Below are positions 991-62,611 of a stretch of DNA of 64,000 bases, one piece after another (the first letter of the stretch is position 1; the number at the start of each line of letters is the position of its first letter). The DNA is taken from NCBI GenBank assembly GCA_029262275.1, contig JAJCZS010000029.1, positions 206,514 to 270,513 on the forward strand, read 5' to 3'. The notes below the pieces were generated by a model, which had not been told where the DNA came from, did not search any database, and worked only from the letters and a program-made list of their open reading frames with translations. Origin of the DNA: Deltaproteobacteria bacterium (GTDB taxonomy: Bacteria > Desulfobacterota_D > UBA1144 > Nemesobacterales > UBA2774). The translations under genes and the position numbers were made by a program.

Positions 991-2004
991 CTAATTGAAT
1001 AGTTCTTCTCTTTCTTTTTGCAGGATTTCTTGGGGTAAAGCAACAAGCCCAGCTTCGGTGATAGCTTCCTGGCCATTCTTGCTCAAGATATATTCCACAA
1101 ACTTCCTTGTTACATTTTTCATCCCTTCTGAAGGATTTTCCCTCAAATATAGATAAAGGTCTCTGGTTAAGGGGTATTGCTTAGATCTGGCATACCGAGT
1201 TTCTGGTGGGAAGCACTTATCTTCTGATTCGCCTATATTAATCGCTTTCACTCTGGACGGTAGCAATCCTGCGCCGGTGTATCCTATCGAAGAAATGTCA
1301 CGCGAAACAAAATCAACAATGTCTCTTGAGCTTGCCAGATCTGTAATGCTTTGTTTGTATGTCCCGTCGCATAGGGCTATCTTTCTAAAAACATCATATG
1401 TGCCAGATGTTGAGGTTCTCCCATATACTCGAATAGGAGTATTTAACCATTCGCCCACAAGGTTTAATCCTCCCCAAGTTGTGATATCAGCTGACCCCTT
1501 ACAGGAGTAACTATTTGAAAATACTCCGTCTAATTCATCTATTGTCATACAATTTATGGGGTTTTCTATATTCACCAGAACAGCAATCATATTGATTGCG
1601 ACCTTAATTTCCACCGGTTCATAACCGTATACATTCTTAAAATCCTGTTTTTCCTGATTTGACATAGGCTCTGACATAGCCCCTATATCAACATTGCCTG
1701 TTTCTAGATCTTGTGGAGCCTTGCGGGAGCCGAAGTTTTCGACCATACAATTGGTATTATGATATATATCCGAGAAACCTTTACACCAAAGAGACAAAAT
1801 ATTGCTCATAGTTGATGAGCCTGAGATAGATATTGTGCCGTAAACTTTTGCTCTTTGAACCGAACTTGTATCTGAGCTGCAGCTGGTGGCGACCATAGAC
1901 ATGAACAACAAGCTCAACAATATGCAAACGTTCCTATGTCTGCCAATATTGTTTTGCACTTGTATGATATTAAAACATCCGGATGATTCCAATATTATTC
2001 TCAT
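991..2004 (-). CDS. PstS-like phosphate/anion-binding periplasmic lipoprotein paired with a pLGIC
   Basis: A 337-residue type II solute-binding protein. The N-terminus carries a hydrophobic stretch ending in a lipobox-like MVATSC (Cys42), so a lipid-anchored protein is likely; the 34 residues before it are unusually long and a later start is possible. Family marks are GSSTM near the start of the mature protein, DIGAMSEPM (compare D-I-x-x-(A/S)-S-R-P in PstS), and YGRTSTSGTYDVF, matching the SGT phosphate-contact loop of PstS-type proteins. Its ATG overlaps the stop of the upstream pLGIC gene (ATGA, 2004-2001), so the two should be co-translated. No pstC/A/B genes are adjacent, which argues for a sensing role rather than import (inference). 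The ligand is not proven; phosphate or another small oxyanion is most likely. Confidence 0.85.
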   Translation of the reverse strand: MRIILESSGCFNIIQVQNNIGRHRNVCILLSLLFMSMVATSCSSDTSSVQRAKVYGTISISGSSTMSNILSLWCKGFSDIYHNTNCMVENFGSRKAPQDLETGNVDIGAMSEPMSNQEKQDFKNVYGYEPVEIKVAINMIAVLVNIENPINCMTIDELDGVFSNSYSCKGSADITTWGGLNLVGEWLNTPIRVYGRTSTSGTYDVFRKIALCDGTYKQSITDLASSRDIVDFVSRDISSIGYTGAGLLPSRVKAINIGESEDKCFPPETRYARSKQYPLTRDLYLYLRENPSEGMKNVTRKFVEYILSKNGQEAITEAGLVALPQEILQKEREELFN

Positions 2005-3077
2005 TTGATTAGATCCACTATTTGCAGCTCCTTGGTATCAAATATGTAATAAATCAAAAGCCATACAGATATCATAAATACCGGGAAAGCAAATCTGCAA
2101 ATATTGTTACCAAGACTCCATACTCTCTCACGTCCTCTTTGCTTAAATAATTCAAAAATAATGATTGCTATAATTATCATCCCGCACATAAAATATCCGG
2201 AAGTTATTATAGCGTTTAACATTGTTTTATACGGAACACTTGGGAGATACTTTAGGACTAAAAAATTAAAGGCAACTGATGTAAGAGCAAAGGATACTAC
2301 AATGCTAGTCCGGCCGCTTATAAAAGACGAGTTTATCCAGAACACGCAGGTCGCCATCAGTATGAAGAAGCAAAACGGTATTATAATCCGTAATATGTAG
2401 AATGCAGACCTACGTTCTAGCTTCATTTCATAAAGTATGTACGCGCGGTCTTGGGTCTCAAATCCAAATGCCCTTTTAAATCCCGCAAATACAGATATAG
2501 GATAAGCAACCCAGTCATCACTCCTGAACAACTTGCTGATTCCTGTATATTGTTCAGACGCTATAAACACCAACTGGTCAGAATTATAAGTGAATGATTG
2601 TAATTCTAGCTTTAACTCCTGATCATCAAAAGGAAATCTTGTGTAGTCAAATTCTGTGAGAATATCGGCTGAGAATATGTATCTGTATACAATAGAGCCG
2701 TCAGGAAATATTGTGAGATTATTCTTCTGGATACTCGGTTTGCTGGCCTGATTGATAATCTCGGGGTCCGGATACCACATTGTAGCAAGCATCTTATCAG
2801 CCAGTGGTCCCGAATAGACCTTTGGAGCACCGTCCGGGCTTTGAAAAGATACTCTGTCATCCTTCCACAGCATAGTTATCTCAAAAAGACCGCTTAAAAT
2901 TTGATTAGGCTGGTCAATCTTTACAATGTGCAATAAGTATAAGCCCATCTCAACTTCAAAAGGCTGTTCTGTTGATGTGGGTATGGGTTTAGAGATGGGA
3001 AGACTTTGTGCAGCAGAATATACAGCAGCACAATATAGCACAATAATTGATGCACCAATAAATAGAAAATGTCTCAT
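2001..3077 (-). CDS. Pentameric ligand-gated ion channel (pro-loop/Cys-loop receptor homologue)
   Basis: The 358-residue product has a signal peptide (1-23), an extracellular beta-sandwich (about 38-222) and four helices: M1 224-248, M2 255-277, M3 284-310, M4 326-346. Family signatures are WYPDPEIIN (loop A region, 101-109), the pro-loop FDYTRFPFDDQ (143-153) and a Pro inside M1. M2 aligns without gaps to the GLIC pore helix through its AFN-x-LV-x-x-x-LP end. That places Ser at 2' and 6', Leu at 9', and Ser-Gly-Arg at -2'/-1'/0', so the acidic ring that gives GLIC cation selectivity is absent. Bacterial members gate on protons or small ligands in the periplasm. The following PstS-like gene overlaps it by ATGA, so that binding protein is a candidate partner or ligand donor (inference). 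Confidence 0.92.
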   Translation of the reverse strand: MRHFLFIGASIIVLYCAAVYSAAQSLPISKPIPTSTEQPFEVEMGLYLLHIVKIDQPNQILSGLFEITMLWKDDRVSFQSPDGAPKVYSGPLADKMLATMWYPDPEIINQASKPSIQKNNLTIFPDGSIVYRYIFSADILTEFDYTRFPFDDQELKLELQSFTYNSDQLVFIASEQYTGISKLFRSDDWVAYPISVFAGFKRAFGFETQDRAYILYEMKLERRSAFYILRIIIPFCFFILMATCVFWINSSFISGRTSIVVSFALTSVAFNFLVLKYLPSVPYKTMLNAIITSGYFMCGMIIIAIIIFELFKQRGRERVWSLGNNICRFAFPVFMISVWLLIYYIFDTKELQIVDLIK

Positions 3078-56827: not shown

Positions 56828-58090
56828 ATGAAAAACAATGTTCTCATTCTAATAGTTCTTAGCCTTATCCTTTTAGTATCAGAAACCACAACCCTAGCTC
56901 AAGAAAATGGCAGCATACCTATTGGTATGTCGGCAGCGTTTAGTGGACCTGCCAAACAACTTGGGCTCAACATGAGGGAGGGGGTTGAAGCTTATTTTAA
57001 CAAGATAAACAATCAGGGTGGTGTAAACGGCAAGAAGTTAGAACTTATATCTATAGATGACAGCTACGAGCCAAAGTATGCGGCATCTAATGTATATAAT
57101 TTAATTAACAAAAACGGTGTAACGGCATTTATAGGAAATGTAGGAACACCAACCGCAAAAGCTGCGACTCCAATAACTTTGGAGAATGAAATTTTGTATT
57201 ATGCTCCTTTTAGTGGGTCGTCACTGCTGAGACCCTATGACAAAAGAGAATTTCTAATTAAGACTAAAAGCTCAAGGGAATACCACGCAAACAAATATAT
57301 AATCAACTTCAGAGCAAGTTATGCCCAGGAAACTGAAAAAATTATTGAGAATCTCATAAAAAGTGGAATTAAACCTTACGAAATAGCTATATTCACACAA
57401 GACGACAGCTACGGTTATGATGGATATAGAGGAGCCGTAGAAGCTCTTGAGAACAGGGGATATATTAACTCAAAAGAGATTCCCTACGGCACATACAAAA
57501 GAAATTCCCTAAATATTGAAAATGGATTGCTTGAGATACTCCACTCTAGAAGAACTATTAGGGCAGTTGTGATAGTAGGATCTTACAAACCAGTTGCCAA
57601 GTTTATTAAGTTTGCAAGCAAATTAATACCCCACGCAGTTTTTATAAATGTCTCATTCGTAGGGTGCCTTCCACTTGCAGAGTTACTCGACAACACTACT
57701 GATGATGTTTTTGTCACGCAAGTTGTGCCCCATTTCAATTCTGATCTTCAGTTGGTTAAAGAATATAAGCAAGATTTGAAAAAATATTTCCCAGATGCTG
57801 AACCAAATTTTGTCTCTTTAGAGGGATACATTTCAGCATATTTATTTGTGGAAGGATTGAAGAAATCAAATGGTGATTACTCCTCAGATGGAATTATCAA
57901 AGGCATAGAAAAAATAGATTTTGAGAATTTAAAACTTGGATTTGATTTGTCTCTAGACGAATTAGATCATCAAATAAGTGACAATGTATGGCTTACAAAG
58001 ATCAATAAAGACACTTGCGAAGAAGTAAGCTGGAGTGAGTTTCGAAACTACATAGAGGAAATGAATAGTCAGCAATACTACCAAGAATAA
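56828..58090 (+). CDS. LivK-type periplasmic substrate-binding protein paired with a Cache-pLGIC fusion
   Basis: The ATG at 56828 begins a clean signal peptide (MKNNVLILIVLSLILLVSE, then TTTLAQ); the longer frame from 56720 has no such leader at its start. The 420-residue protein has PIGMSAAFSGPAKQLGLNMR, EAYFNKINNQGGVNGKKLEL and FIGNVGTPTAKAATPI, the layout of Peripla_BP_6 (type I) proteins for amino acids and similar ligands. The stop TAA overlaps the next ATG (TAATG, 58088-58092), so the binding protein and the Cache-pLGIC protein are co-translated. No ABC permease or ATPase is near. A ligand-presenting role to the receptor is inferred. Confidence 0.9.
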   Translation: MKNNVLILIVLSLILLVSETTTLAQENGSIPIGMSAAFSGPAKQLGLNMREGVEAYFNKINNQGGVNGKKLELISIDDSYEPKYAASNVYNLINKNGVTAFIGNVGTPTAKAATPITLENEILYYAPFSGSSLLRPYDKREFLIKTKSSREYHANKYIINFRASYAQETEKIIENLIKSGIKPYEIAIFTQDDSYGYDGYRGAVEALENRGYINSKEIPYGTYKRNSLNIENGLLEILHSRRTIRAVVIVGSYKPVAKFIKFASKLIPHAVFINVSFVGCLPLAELLDNTTDDVFVTQVVPHFNSDLQLVKEYKQDLKKYFPDAEPNFVSLEGYISAYLFVEGLKKSNGDYSSDGIIKGIEKIDFENLKLGFDLSLDELDHQISDNVWLTKINKDTCEEVSWSEFRNYIEEMNSQQYYQE

Positions 58091-60135
58091 TGTTCTCAAA
58101 ATTTAAAATATCCAATGATTTTATTATCTCCATACTAGTAATTCTATTTCTAGTATTCCTATACCTCCTATTTGATCTATTTCTTTATGATAGATTGAAT
58201 TCAAACCAGATAAAAGAAGAAGGCAGATTAGCCAGCAAAGAGCTAAATGTAAATGTTGAAGTTTTCTTAAAGGAAATTCAGGATGTCGCAGACGAAATCA
58301 CTGATCAAATTTCAACTGGGATAATAAACAAAGAAAACTTAGTTGAAGAATTAGAACAAACCCTAAAGTTTGAGTATGAAATATCCAGTATCGGAGTGCT
58401 GTTTAGTCCTTACTCCTATGACAAGAAATTAAGACTATATTCTCCCTATATAATAAAAAGTGGTAATGATACCAAGCAAGTGAGCTTTGATTCATTCTAT
58501 GATTACACAACACAAAGTACTCCCTGGTACGAGGAATCCACAAAGTTAGATGAGAATTGGACAAAACCTTTTTATGATGAAATTAGTGATAAAGAGTACA
58601 TATACTTCACCAAAACATTCACCATGACCTCAGAGAGTGGAGATGACAGCACTGGGCTATTATTTATTGGCATCTCCATAGAGGACCTAAGGGACAAATT
58701 ATCCTCACTCAACCTCGACTATCCCAGTCAGCCCTATTTAATCACCACTGAAGGACTCTACGTAGTTGAGCCCTCTGATATCAGAAGTCACAAAGAAGAT
58801 AGTTTAAAAGAAATCCAAGGGAGCAAATTTGAATTTTTAGTAACTAAGGACATCAACACCCAAGAGACTGTATACAAATTCCTCACTCCTTTAAAATCAA
58901 ACGATTGGGTAGTTGTTTTTGAAATTGTAGAAAGTGAGATACTGGAGAATTACTCATCGTATAGAAAAAAAATAATCAACATAATAATTTCGCTTACGAT
59001 CTTATTAACAGCACTGGCTTTTTATTTCATAAGAAGAATTACCAAAAATTATGAACCAAGTTATTTATTTTGGTTTTTCTCAACTCCATTATTCGCACTT
59101 TATATTCTTGGATCAATATATATATGCTATTTGGGATTAGATTATCAGGACAAATCTGATAAAGAACAAAATGCGATTTTAAATGAATCAATCCTTGAAG
59201 ATTTCAAGCTCGACTATATTAGAGAATCCTTAAACAAGAAAGAAGAACCTCCAATTTTTATCCCTACAGGTGTGTTCATAGAATCTGTAGATTTCAACTC
59301 CACGGGGACAGTTAATATCAAAGGGATAATATGGCAAAAATACTACAATGGGATTCATGATGACGTAGCTAGAAACGTTTCCATCTCAAATGCGAATGAC
59401 CAGAATCTAACTAAGTTTTTTGAAAAATCCTTTGGCAACTACAATTTGATTGAATGGGTGTTCAATATAAATATAAGCTCGGACTTTGATTACAGAAAAT
59501 ATCCGTTTAGCAATGAAAATATGTGGTTACAGCTTAAACATCAGGAGTTTGATAAAAATATAGTTCTCATACCGGATCTAGGCTCCTACAAACTAGGCTC
59601 ATCAAGATATCTGCCGGGACTTGATAAAAACATAACAATTAGAAATTGGGAAATTAAAAACTCATTTTTTAGCTACACATTCGACAGCTATAACACTAAT
59701 TTTGGCATCGACAATTTCATAGGCCAGTCCAATGTTCCTGAAATTTATTTCAACATAATCATGGGCCCAAACATAGTAAACGTGTTTATCTCCAACTTTC
59801 TACCTATAGCAATTGCACTATTTCTGATGTTTGCAATATTTAAAACCGCAAAAGGGCACTATGTTGTAAGACCTTATGCCACCCTATTCTTAGCTCTTAT
59901 CTTCTTACAAATAAGTTTAAGAAGAAACCTGGGAGCAAATGAGATTGTTTATATTGAATACTATTATTTCCTAACTTATTTCATAATGGCGGGTGTCAGC
60001 CTAAATGCAATCCTGCTTGAGAATTCCAAGCTTGGTATCGTTCAATACAAAAACAACTTAATTCCAAAATTACTCTTCTGGCCGTTTACAGGGCTTGCGA
60101 TACTTATCTTAAATATCATCGTATTTTATAACTAA
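58090..60135 (+). CDS. Membrane receptor fusing a Cache domain to a pLGIC-like ion channel
   Basis: The 681-residue protein reads in order: helix TM1 (11-33); periplasmic dCache-like domain (about 36-285, with YTTQSTPWYEES and LLFIGISIEDLRDKL); TM2 (294-314); short cytosolic turn RRITKNYEP; TM3 (325-349); a pLGIC-like extracellular domain (about 385-560); and four helices M1 561-584, M2 595-611, M3 618-643, M4 660-680. The pLGIC part is shown by PTGVFIESVDFNSTGTVNIK (strand beta1-beta2), the pro-loop DFDYRKYPFSNEN (465-477, Pro472) and the M1-M4 spacing. The WxPD loop A motif is missing and M2 is unusually hydrophobic with a Pro, so conduction is uncertain. Topology places both sensor domains in the periplasm. 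It probably senses the ligand brought by the upstream binding protein. Confidence 0.82.
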   Translation: MFSKFKISNDFIISILVILFLVFLYLLFDLFLYDRLNSNQIKEEGRLASKELNVNVEVFLKEIQDVADEITDQISTGIINKENLVEELEQTLKFEYEISSIGVLFSPYSYDKKLRLYSPYIIKSGNDTKQVSFDSFYDYTTQSTPWYEESTKLDENWTKPFYDEISDKEYIYFTKTFTMTSESGDDSTGLLFIGISIEDLRDKLSSLNLDYPSQPYLITTEGLYVVEPSDIRSHKEDSLKEIQGSKFEFLVTKDINTQETVYKFLTPLKSNDWVVVFEIVESEILENYSSYRKKIINIIISLTILLTALAFYFIRRITKNYEPSYLFWFFSTPLFALYILGSIYICYLGLDYQDKSDKEQNAILNESILEDFKLDYIRESLNKKEEPPIFIPTGVFIESVDFNSTGTVNIKGIIWQKYYNGIHDDVARNVSISNANDQNLTKFFEKSFGNYNLIEWVFNINISSDFDYRKYPFSNENMWLQLKHQEFDKNIVLIPDLGSYKLGSSRYLPGLDKNITIRNWEIKNSFFSYTFDSYNTNFGIDNFIGQSNVPEIYFNIIMGPNIVNVFISNFLPIAIALFLMFAIFKTAKGHYVVRPYATLFLALIFLQISLRRNLGANEIVYIEYYYFLTYFIMAGVSLNAILLENSKLGIVQYKNNLIPKLLFWPFTGLAILILNIIVFYN

Positions 60136-60146
60136 AGACAGACTAT

Positions 60147-60626
60147 ATGAACACACTTTTTACAATAAGACCTCTAAGAAATGGAGAAGAGGTTCCTATA
60201 TGCAACCTGGTTGCAAGATCTTTTAACGAATTTATTGCCCCTGAGTTTTCCGAAGAGGGTGTAGAAGAGTTCTTCAAGTATGCAAACCCTCGTGCTTTCA
60301 AGAAACGTTTGCAATCAGGATACTTTGCAATGGTCTCGGAATCCGAGGAAACGCTAGCTGGTGTTATAGAAGTTAAAGGAAATAACCACATATCTATGCT
60401 ATATGTAGACAAACTCTTTCACCGAAAAGGATTAGCAAAAGGGCTCATCAGAGAAATGATTAATATAATAGATACTAATTCTGACATAACTGTAAATTCC
60501 TCAAGATACGCTGTACCCTTTTATGAGAGTCTTGGATTTCTTCAATTTGAAGAGGAGAGAACAATATACGGCGTAATTCATGTGCCTATGATCGTTACAC
60601 ACTCCAAACTGAGTGAGTCATTATGA
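60147..60626 (+). CDS. GNAT-family N-acetyltransferase
   Basis: The 159-residue protein has FTIRPLRNGEEVPICNLVAR at the N-terminus and the acetyl-CoA loop ISMLYVDKLFHRKGLAKGLI (x-V-x-x-x-x-(R/Q)-x-x-G-x-(G/A) motif), ending AVPFYESLGFLQFEEE. It acetylates an unknown small molecule or protein N-terminus. It starts 11 bases after the receptor gene and overlaps the methyltransferase by ATGA, so it may belong to the same operon. Confidence 0.92.
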   Translation: MNTLFTIRPLRNGEEVPICNLVARSFNEFIAPEFSEEGVEEFFKYANPRAFKKRLQSGYFAMVSESEETLAGVIEVKGNNHISMLYVDKLFHRKGLAKGLIREMINIIDTNSDITVNSSRYAVPFYESLGFLQFEEERTIYGVIHVPMIVTHSKLSESL

Positions 60627-61348
60627 TGAAAACACCCCTTACTAAAAAATTTACAGTTGAGGAAATAAAGGAGCGCTTTGATCAGGATGTCGAGCGTTTC
60701 TCCAACCTGGAGACAGGCCAGCAAGCAGTAGTGGATGCTCCCATTATGCTTGAGCTCATATCCAAACTTGCAGGCGGCATTAAACCTGATGTGGTGAACA
60801 TGCTGGATATTGGCGCTGGTGCCGGCAATAACACGATCTCTATACTAAGAGAGCGGCCCGGAATTAATTGTGACCTAATTGATATTAGTGCGGCTATGCT
60901 TGAGAGGGCAAAAGAGCGAATATCCCAAGAACAAGTGGGCCAAGTCAGAATATTCCAGAGTGATTTTAGAGACCTCACCCTACCCCACTCTCATTATGAT
61001 CTGGTAATTGCTGCAGCCGTGCTGCATCACCTAAGAGATGATGAAGATTGGGAGAGCTCATTTAAAAAAATATATGATCTACTAAAACCTAGTGGAGCAT
61101 TTTTTATAAGTGACATGGTTCACCACCAGCATGAGGCGATTCATGGTGCAATGTGGGAGAGATATGGGAAGCACTTAGAATCCATTGGTGGCGCTGAGTA
61201 CAAAGAAAAAGTCTTTGATTATATAGATAAAGAGGACTCTCCAAGAAGCTTGTCTTATCAAATGGATCTTATGAAGAAAGTCGGGTTTAAAACTGTTGAT
61301 GTTCTGCATAAAAATTCGTGCTTTGCAGCTTTTGTCGGTATTAAATAA
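60623..61348 (+). CDS. Class I SAM-dependent methyltransferase
   Basis: The 241-residue protein has MLDIGAGAGNNTISILRER (SAM motif I), DLIDISAAMLERAKERIS, and YDLVIAAAVLHHLRDDEDWE (motifs II/III). The substrate is unknown; the type is that of small-molecule methyltransferases. Its ATG overlaps the GNAT stop (ATGA), so the pair is translationally coupled. Confidence 0.92.
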   Translation: MMKTPLTKKFTVEEIKERFDQDVERFSNLETGQQAVVDAPIMLELISKLAGGIKPDVVNMLDIGAGAGNNTISILRERPGINCDLIDISAAMLERAKERISQEQVGQVRIFQSDFRDLTLPHSHYDLVIAAAVLHHLRDDEDWESSFKKIYDLLKPSGAFFISDMVHHQHEAIHGAMWERYGKHLESIGGAEYKEKVFDYIDKEDSPRSLSYQMDLMKKVGFKTVDVLHKNSCFAAFVGIK

Positions 61349-61570: not shown

Positions 61571-62611
61571 TTAGGTTAGAAAGGAAGCTACTAATATCAG
61601 TACAAATAAAACTATAAAAGCCCATCTGGCCCAATAATCCAGCTCGTGGGCTTGCTGCGGCTTATCAACACTTACAAATCTGGCGACAACGCAAGTTTCG
61701 ACAAGCACAGCAAATACTAAGAACATTGATCCGAACAAGAAATAGTCCATATGCGTTAGGTAAGAAATCTTGGGCAGAAGATTACCCAGCAGAAAACGAT
61801 AAGCTATAAGGGTAAGTATGGCAGTTATTGCAATGCTGAACTTCGGCCCCACGTGCACTGGATCAATAAAAAGTACAATTAAGGACATAAACACAATCAT
61901 GATTAGTGGTACGAGCACTTTAATAATATAAAATTTCACTAGCCTTTCAGCTTCTAATTCGAAAACCACTCCCGGTAACACTGGCAAATTCGGCCCAAGG
62001 TTTATAGGCTCAGCATATGCATTCCAGTTGACCACTTCCCAATCAGTTACAGTGAGCACATCAGCCATTCCAGTTCTTTCTGTATCAATAGTGAACTTAA
62101 TGTTTCTAGCATCTTTACCAACTGACACAAGTTTGATCTTAAGCGTATTCTTATCTAGTGGAAAGTCCCTTAGATCCATCGGATAGGAGATTGTTCCCCA
62201 GTAGCGTTGGCCTAAAGTTACAGTACCATCAGGCGCAACCTCAACCTGATCTGGAAAAGTTTCAAACAGTTTTTGCTGATTTAATATTTGCAGGTTTGGA
62301 GTCCATATATCATCTGTATCCATAGTGCGTATGTACTTAGTATCCATTGCCAAACGTGGGTCTATCCATGTTGCTATAACTGCGAAATTGGCAATAAAAG
62401 ATTGTTGAGCTCCATCGATGGTATCGATATCTATAACTACAAATCCAAGTTCAATTGGGAAATCCTGATCTTGCGGCCCTGGGCGTACCTCCGCCAGGTA
62501 TTCATCTTGAGTTAATTGTTCGGCTACAGTTGTCCCTGCCATAAAAACAACTAGAAGAAATAGAGAGCATAAACCTACGATTATCTTTGAATAATTATTG
62601 TTAATTTTCAT
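61571..62611 (-). CDS. Pentameric ligand-gated ion channel, solo gene
   Basis: The 346-residue protein has a signal peptide (1-31, cut near TTVAEQ), the extracellular domain with PIELGFVVIDIDTIDGAQQS, DIWTPNLQILNQ (loop A region, 101-112), the pro-loop YPMDLRDFPLDKN (143-155), and four helices M1 226-249, M2 256-275, M3 286-311, M4 328-345. In M2 the alignment to GLIC-type channels gives G-P-K at -2'/-1'/0', Ser 2', Thr 6' and Leu 9', with no acidic ring, so cation selectivity as in GLIC is not expected. The basic/Pro entry is more like anion channels, but this is inference. It is on the minus strand, 224 bases from the methyltransferase. Confidence 0.93.
   Translation of the reverse strand: MKINNNYSKIIVGLCSLFLLVVFMAGTTVAEQLTQDEYLAEVRPGPQDQDFPIELGFVVIDIDTIDGAQQSFIANFAVIATWIDPRLAMDTKYIRTMDTDDIWTPNLQILNQQKLFETFPDQVEVAPDGTVTLGQRYWGTISYPMDLRDFPLDKNTLKIKLVSVGKDARNIKFTIDTERTGMADVLTVTDWEVVNWNAYAEPINLGPNLPVLPGVVFELEAERLVKFYIIKVLVPLIMIVFMSLIVLFIDPVHVGPKFSIAITAILTLIAYRFLLGNLLPKISYLTHMDYFLFGSMFLVFAVLVETCVVARFVSVDKPQQAHELDYWARWAFIVLFVLILVASFLT

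What the first reader, a model, noticed from the sequence alone, without database searches (positions are those of the whole stretch)
56828..60135. Cache domain fused to a pentameric ligand-gated channel, co-translated with a LivK-type binding protein
Seen: the 681-residue product carries TM-Cache-TM-TM-pLGIC ectodomain-M1-M4 in a topologically consistent order, and the pro-loop and beta1-beta2 segments align with the two simpler pLGICs in the same window. The binding-protein stop and the receptor start share bases (TAATG), and no ABC permease or ATPase is nearby. Known: Cache domains sense small ligands in chemoreceptors and kinases, LuxP docks on the tandem PAS-like domain of LuxQ, and some bacterial pLGICs such as DeCLIC have extra N-terminal domains. 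Inference: a periplasmic binding protein hands ligand information to a Cache domain that gates or modulates a channel pore.
Basis: partly seen in the sequence, partly recalled or inferred. Interest (0 to 1): 0.93.

Follow-up and report, generated by a model that had tools for sequence, protein, structure and literature searches.

The report
Binding-protein-operated nerve-type channel in bacteria
Two overlapping bacterial genes encode a predicted secreted solute-binding protein and a Cache sensor fused to a channel core of the nerve-receptor family; other bacteria fuse such binding proteins to the end of the same kind of receptor, so the binding protein likely controls the pore, a step that remains untested.

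The parts
56828..58090 (+). Peripla_BP_6 (PBP type I) solute-binding protein, 420 aa; first 25 residues (56828-56902) look like a signal peptide
   Evidence: Pfam PF13458 E 6.6e-45; closest solved relative 4kv7 E 2.6e-81 over residues 30-405; hydropathy
58088..58092 (+). TAATG stop/start overlap of PBP and receptor (one shared base)
   Evidence: sequence
58090..60135 (+). 681-aa double-Cache/pLGIC fusion receptor with seven predicted membrane segments
58114..58188 (+). TM1 (about residues 9-33), continuing into the long Cache helix
58183..58953 (+). double Cache domain (residues 32-288); W146/Y147 of the amino-acid motif kept, its Arg and Asp positions are T144 and G194
58951..59043 (+). TM2 (residues 288-318)
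59056..59142 (+). TM3 (residues 323-351)
59239..59769 (+). pLGIC extracellular beta-sandwich domain with pro-loop (residues 384-560)
59773..60129 (+). M1-M4 channel domain (residues 562-680); R611 invariant in 95 of 95 aligned family cores, residue 623 is E in 93 and D in 2 of 95
60147..60626 (+). GNAT acetyltransferase, next gene of the likely operon; order kept in the congener G002
60623..61348 (+). SAM methyltransferase, overlapping next gene; order kept in G002

Best explanation
The gene pair encodes a predicted secreted solute-binding protein and a membrane protein that joins a double Cache sensor to a pentameric-channel core, and the binding protein, with its ligand, is predicted to dock on the periplasmic face of the receptor and so likely gate the channel. 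Shown here: the domains (by sequence profile and predicted structure), the overlap of the genes, the absence of a Liv permease match in the genome, PBPs of several Pfam families fused behind M4 or encoded next to the same kind of receptor elsewhere, and the window PBP's relatives sitting beside sensor kinases and a phosphatase. Inferred: five subunits form the pore; each subunit carries its Cache on extra helices at the channel rim; the PBP closes on a ligand and contacts the Cache (as LuxP does on LuxQ and TorT on TorS) and/or the pLGIC ectodomain; this moves the ectodomain and opens or closes the pore, turning the ligand signal into ion flux and a change of membrane potential. The ligand, the ion and the sign of the response are unknown.
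For: (1) Natural fusions: 13 of 65 proteins found with the P0019 core carry PBP domains C-terminal to M4 in the same chain, where the topology puts them in the periplasm: Peripla_BP_6 (P0019, P0040), Peripla_BP_5 (P0043, truncated at its end), SBP_bac_1 (P0042), Peripla_BP_5 plus SBP_bac_1 in tandem (P0046, P0047), SBP_bac_5 (P0051, P0052, P0054, P0055, P0061, P0062, P0066). (2) PBP swapping: P0019 and the Anaerolineales receptors L049/L054/L058 are 45-48% identical but end in Peripla_BP_6 versus SBP_bac_5. (3) Neighbours: 12 of 79 loci have a same-strand adjacent or fused PBP (L013, L014, L019, L020, L043, L049, L050, L054, L055, L058, L060, L079). On either strand, PBP-like genes are 15 of 147 at position +-1, 4 of 136 at +-2 and 1 of 341 further out, in 80 loci with the window's included. 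(4) Partner swapping of the window PBP's own family: of 17 matches in 16 of 100 genomes (own included) at E<=1e-30, 2 are beside Cache-pLGIC, 9 beside a kinase homologous to that of G020 (TorS-like sensor, HAMP, HisKA, HATPase), 1 beside a sCache-HAMP-PAS kinase, 1 beside a sCache-HAMP-SpoIIE phosphatase, 3 beside none of these, 1 cut by a contig end. (5) No PF02653 permease match in the genome. (6) Receptor (E<=0.001) and PBP (E<=1e-30) are present together in 2 and absent together from 5 of 7 genomes of the genus. (7) The window Cache lacks the Arg and Asp of the amino-acid motif, which fits indirect sensing.
Against: In 67 of 79 related loci no same-strand adjacent or fused PBP was found, so the receptor can probably work without one (some flanks are missing). 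No complex was modelled; the PBP half of the P0019 model was unfolded (pLDDT under 50). Adjacency and fusion show association, not docking or gating. The phmmer screen used queries partly taken from +-1 genes and so favours them; its 15 include three opposite-strand genes (L029, L034 at 2.6 kb, L040) and a 93-aa fragment (L060). A Pfam control on 122 of 253 second and third neighbours showed no PBP family among those with two or more members, but single members beyond the first 25 families are hidden, and phmmer found two in that set (L049 -2, L029 +2). The TorS-like sensor match is below Pfam's cut-off (24.7 against 27 bits) and was tested on one of the nine kinases. The 13 of 65 fusions come from a search that started from a fused protein and admits only 603-1918 aa. 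Lacking the amino-acid motif does not exclude another direct Cache ligand.
Confidence: 0.62

Rival explanations
1. Ligand feeder: the PBP only concentrates a small molecule near the membrane and releases it to the pLGIC ectodomain or the Cache, which are the true sensors. This is the 2004 proposal for PBP and Cache domains with pLGICs.
For: Proposed in PMC549065 (passages). Many Cache-pLGICs show no PBP nearby, so the receptor probably has a ligand site of its own.
Against: Relatives of this PBP sit beside TorS-like and Cache kinases, and for TorT/TorS and LuxP/LuxQ the literature describes protein-protein complexes, also without ligand (PMC6321045 passages). The window Cache lacks the amino-acid pocket charges.
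Confidence: 0.2
2. The Cache senses a small molecule directly and the PBP is unrelated or serves another use, the overlap reflecting compact genome layout only.
For: Cache domains bind ligands directly in many receptors (several of the solved Cache matches hold ligands); in 67 of 79 loci no same-strand PBP was found.
Against: 13 of 65 fusions, repeated pairing with PBPs of different families, no Liv permease match in the genome, joint presence and absence in the genus.
Confidence: 0.12
3. The core keeps the pLGIC fold but is no longer an ion channel; it is a conformational switch that signals to cytoplasmic partners such as the downstream GNAT or methyltransferase.
For: The M2-M3 stretch of most family members lacks the proline seen in the simple pLGICs, and the window M2 is very hydrophobic with R594 near its inner end; Pfam pLGIC models do not recognise the core.
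Against: No cytoplasmic signalling domain was detected; loops facing the cytoplasm are short; the core aligns through M1-M4 and the pro-loop across the family; GLIC fold match over 269 residues.
Confidence: 0.06

Closest known systems
Cache/MCP-N-fused prokaryotic ART-LGICs (Tasneem et al. 2004, PMC549065)
   Same: N-terminal Cache fused to a pLGIC core; named there from Methanosarcina, Cytophaga and Microbulbifer; our relatives include Methanosarcina loci L066 and L076
   Different: That paper (passages read) reports PBP-I fused at the N-terminus of other pLGICs and stand-alone PBP-II or Cache genes in operons; the passages do not report C-terminal PBP fusions or PBPs paired with the Cache-fused receptor
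LuxP-LuxQ, TorT-TorS, XylFII-LytS (PBP-dependent sensor kinases)
   Same: Signalling PBP working with a transmembrane receptor that has a periplasmic sensor; the window PBP's relatives pair with a TorS-like kinase
   Different: Output here is a channel core instead of a kinase
GLIC, ELIC, DeCLIC
   Same: pLGIC fold; DeCLIC has an extra N-terminal periplasmic domain
   Different: DeCLIC's extra domain is not described as Cache in the two papers checked (0 occurrences of Cache); no extra membrane helices or PBP partner known to me (recalled)
dCache_1 amino-acid sensors such as PctA
   Same: Double Cache fold; conserved W-Y pair
   Different: Arg and Asp of the amino-acid motif are T144 and G194
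Ionotropic glutamate receptors
   Same: PBP-type domains and a pore in one receptor (parallel drawn in PMC549065 passages)
   Different: Unrelated pore (recalled); here PBPs hang on the C-terminus of a pLGIC

Membership tests
[quoted passage not shown]
   Family profile finds GLIC and a GABA-A subunit at E 3.6e-4 and 7.5e-4; single sequence to a GLIC chimera E 0.0086; pro-loop YP motif in the alignment. Pfam's own models stay silent on the window protein
[quoted passage not shown]
   Needs structure of the oligomer and electrophysiology
Double Cache (dCache) sensor domains | Long N-terminal helix and two PAS-like lobes outside the membrane | tested here: met
dCache_1AA amino-acid sensors | Arg (PctA R126) and Asp (PctA D173) ligand-binding residues | tested here: not met
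   T144 and G194 in the window protein, by alignment with MCP Cache domains; motif residues from PMC10104139 passages
PBP-dependent transmembrane receptor systems (LuxPQ, TorTS type) | PBP encoded with the receptor and without a transporter of its own | tested here: met
   TAATG overlap; no PF02653 match in the genome; other permease families were not searched
PBP-dependent transmembrane receptor systems (LuxPQ, TorTS type) | PBP docks on the periplasmic sensor domain and changes output | not testable with these tools
   No complex prediction or binding assay was available
Liv-type ABC importers | Cognate LivHM-type permease | tested here: not met
   0 matches of PF02653 in the genome; control rings in 12 of 14 genomes
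Chemotaxis receptors (role proposed in 2004) | Host has MCP signalling proteins | tested here: not met
   0 matches of PF00015 in the genome; control rings in 7 of 14

The most novel reading that the evidence does not exclude
A widespread class of solute-binding-protein-operated ion channels: a Cache-pLGIC chassis on which periplasmic binding proteins of different families are exchanged like cartridges, beside the gene, overlapping it, or welded to the end of M4 singly or in tandem, so that any solute a PBP can recognise is turned directly into ion flux. It would add ion channels to the receptors that PBPs are known to drive and parallel, by an unrelated pore, the PBP logic of glutamate receptors.
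Probability: 0.5. Interest if true: 0.88.

Novelty: new variant of a known kind. Interest (0 to 1): 0.77.

Why it matters
The natural ligands of most bacterial pLGICs are unknown (recalled); a DeCLIC paper says that little is known about their N-terminal domains (passage). A survey of solute-binding proteins names chemoreceptors, sensor kinases, c-di-GMP enzymes and Ser/Thr kinases as the receptors they interact with, and the word channel does not occur in it (PMC9602780 passages). Here the binding protein itself gives a handle: its ligand can be found by ordinary binding screens, and the fused proteins are ready-made single-chain test objects. If true, it would make the ligand and role of a bacterial Cys-loop relative directly testable and show kinase, phosphatase and channel as interchangeable outputs of one PBP module.

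Tried and rejected
Rejected: that the C-terminal part is not a pLGIC (Pfam silence, overturned). Rejected: that the PBP belongs to a Liv importer. Rejected for this host: chemotaxis output (no MCP domain match). Considered: that the whole pattern is chance adjacency; the fusions speak against it. Tried with little gain: AlphaFold2 of the natural fusion P0019 gave a good Cache-pLGIC but an unfolded PBP half, probably because the added PBP rows were poorly aligned, so it says nothing on docking. A class-wide search around G100 (298 genomes, E<=1e-50) found a match in 14, several of them core only; among the matches whose short flanks were read, PBP fusions appeared only in the two genomes already known, and one more receptor (L136) has a weakly matching SBP_bac_5-like ORF upstream, in a neighbourhood that looks like that of L020. 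Tree (quick, 35 open forks of 92): labelling 12 rows as PBP-bearing gave a minimum of 5 changes; L020, L060 and L029 were labelled without, since the first two were recognised only later and L029 is on the other strand; seven P rows were left unlabelled. Literature: the library was searched for Cache plus pLGIC, PBP plus pLGIC and related terms; among the papers listed or opened, PMC549065 is the only one I saw deal with the Cache fusion; the lists are capped and most subscription papers are not held. Fisher tests use the query-biased counts and are not used as evidence.

Full report
What is there. The window encodes a 420-aa Peripla_BP_6 protein (56828-58090) and, overlapping by one base in TAATG, a 681-aa membrane protein (58090-60135). 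Two further same-strand genes follow closely, a GNAT acetyltransferase and a SAM methyltransferase; the order PBP-receptor-GNAT-methyltransferase is kept in a congener whose receptor is 80% identical.

Relatives. A genome scan confirmed 102 stretches, of which the best 80 were kept as 79 loci, in cyanobacteria, Methanosarcina, Proteobacteria, Chloroflexi, Bacteroidetes and others. Of 89 core-bearing ORFs in the loci then held, 71 also match the Cache profile (the 89 include the window's own gene and its congener's, the latter twice; some of the 18 others are truncated). The Cache-pLGIC fusion itself was described in 2004 from Methanosarcina, Cytophaga and Microbulbifer, as were N-terminal PBP-I fusions and PBP-II operons for other bacterial pLGICs (PMC549065, passages). 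A later inventory discarded flanking domains (PMC4795631, passage).

PBP association. Twelve of the 79 loci have a PBP fused or next to the receptor on the same strand: L013 (congener), L050 (Gammaproteobacteria, upstream, 37 bp), L014 and L019 (alphaproteobacteria, downstream, Peripla_BP_5), L020 (Anaerolineae, upstream, SBP_bac_5), L043 and L055 (Desulfoluna, downstream with 4-nt overlap, a Peripla_BP_6 fused to an MscS channel), L049, L054, L058 (Anaerolineales, SBP_bac_5 fused behind M4, with Peripla_BP_4 and, in two of the three, SBP_bac_1 encoded just upstream), L060 (broken SBP_bac_3/PBP_like_2 ORFs upstream) and L079 (Vibrio, downstream, SBP_bac_3 fused to a Gly_transporter domain). 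L029 and L040 have PBPs next door on the other strand. In the other loci none was found next door, though some flanks are cut. By position and on either strand, PBP-like genes are 15 of 147 at +-1, 4 of 136 at +-2 and 1 of 341 further out (80 loci, window included, L013 not; queries partly came from +-1 genes, so this is biased upward; Pfam control on 122 of 253 genes).

Fusions. Searching with the core of P0019 returned 65 proteins, all with the core. Thirteen carry PBP domains, in each case C-terminal to M4: Peripla_BP_6, Peripla_BP_5, SBP_bac_1, SBP_bac_5, and in P0046 and P0047 Peripla_BP_5 followed by SBP_bac_1 (five of the SBP_bac_5 cases rest and the precomputed domains). The search window (603-1918 aa) and the fused query favour such proteins, so 13 of 65 is not a population frequency. 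P0019 and L049/L054/L058 are 45-48% identical as receptors but bear PBPs of different Pfam families, so the PBP was exchanged on a conserved receptor. Across receptor lineages the eight Peripla_BP_6/5 proteins and the P0019 domain compared are 21-36% identical over the aligned stretch or not detectably similar, apart from the L029 protein, 46-47% identical to those of L014 and L019. A quick tree puts the PBP-bearing rows in several places (minimum 5 changes).

The window PBP's own family. Its closest solved relative is 4kv7 (E 2.6e-81). The genome has two Peripla_BP_6 genes and no match of the Liv permease family. In 100 genomes, the own one included, there were 17 matches in 16 at E<=1e-30: 2 beside the Cache-pLGIC; 9 directly upstream of a kinase homologous to that of G020, which has a TorS-like sensor domain (E 2e-5, below its curated cut-off), HAMP, HisKA and HATPase; 1 overlapping a sCache-HAMP-PAS kinase; 1 beside a sCache-HAMP-SpoIIE phosphatase with STAS and HATPase_c_2 partners; 3 beside none of these; 1 cut by a contig end. 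In the genus the receptor and the PBP occur together in 2 and are both missing from 5 of 7 genomes.

Reading. TorT/TorS, LuxP/LuxQ and XylFII/LytS are solved cases of a PBP docking on a kinase sensor (PMC6321045 passages). The window PBP belongs to a lineage whose neighbours are mostly such receptors, and in this clade the neighbour is a Cache-pLGIC. The simplest reading is that the PBP is the ligand-recognising subunit and the channel is the output. Steps shown: domain make-up, gene overlap, missing Liv permease, fusions, partner swapping. Steps inferred: secretion, docking, pentamer, gating, ion flux. Unknown: ligand, ion, direction. Chemotaxis, the role proposed in 2004, is unlikely in this host, since no MCP domain was found.

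Novelty. Known: Cache-pLGIC fusions, PBP-pLGIC links. Not seen in the results of the searches: C-terminal PBP fusions to Cache-pLGICs, tandem PBPs on one channel, exchange of PBP family on one receptor, or a PBP family shared between kinases and a pLGIC. I rate it a new variant of a known kind.

Noticed in passing
window 991-2004 and 2001-3077, minus strand: A simple pLGIC (Neur_chan_LBD E 2.9e-19) overlaps by 4 nt a PstS-like PBP_like_2 protein (E 6.5e-28), a second PBP-pLGIC gene pair in the same window.
   Followed up: partly
window 61571-62611, minus; genome contigs C7 and C13 (L002, L005): The genome carries four Pfam-visible pLGICs besides the Cache fusion, one of them 222 bp from the end of this gene cluster; five pLGICs in one 2.5-Mb genome seems many.
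   Followed up: partly
L043:8013-10874 and L055:8015-10882 (Desulfoluna): A Peripla_BP_6 domain fused to an MscS-type channel, overlapping the Cache-pLGIC gene by 4 nt: a second kind of PBP-linked channel beside the first.
   Followed up: no
L079:8163-9341 (Vibrio mexicanus): SBP_bac_3 fused to a Gly_transporter membrane domain, one base overlapping the Cache-pLGIC gene.
   Followed up: no
L034, L036, L041 (Okeania and a Microcoleaceae): An opposite-strand gene upstream of the Cache-pLGIC begins alike in the three loci; the L036 copy is an MscS channel by Pfam, and one search counts four MscS genes among 70 first neighbours.
   Followed up: no
L054:2570-5863 (Anaerolineales HSG25): A 1097-aa protein with two Peripla_BP_4 stretches and one SBP_bac_1 domain directly upstream of a Cache-pLGIC-SBP_bac_5 fusion.
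   Followed up: partly
L040:4243-8118 (Spirulina), L077:3463-7266 (Euryarchaeota): Cache-pLGICs with extra N-terminal parts: a TPR array in L040 and about 570 further residues with a second PDC match in L077.
   Followed up: no
P0048, P0050, P0053 (about 930 aa): Cache-pLGICs with roughly 200 extra N-terminal residues before the Cache and no Pfam family listed beyond Cache models.
   Followed up: no
L111, G020 and relatives of the same order: The window PBP's 43%-identical relative in G020 lies in a cluster with a response-regulator/SpoIIE phosphatase, an anti-sigma-type HATPase_c_2 protein and a TorS-like kinase; kinase neighbours recur in eight more genomes. The system is uncharacterised as far as I know (recalled).
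   Followed up: partly
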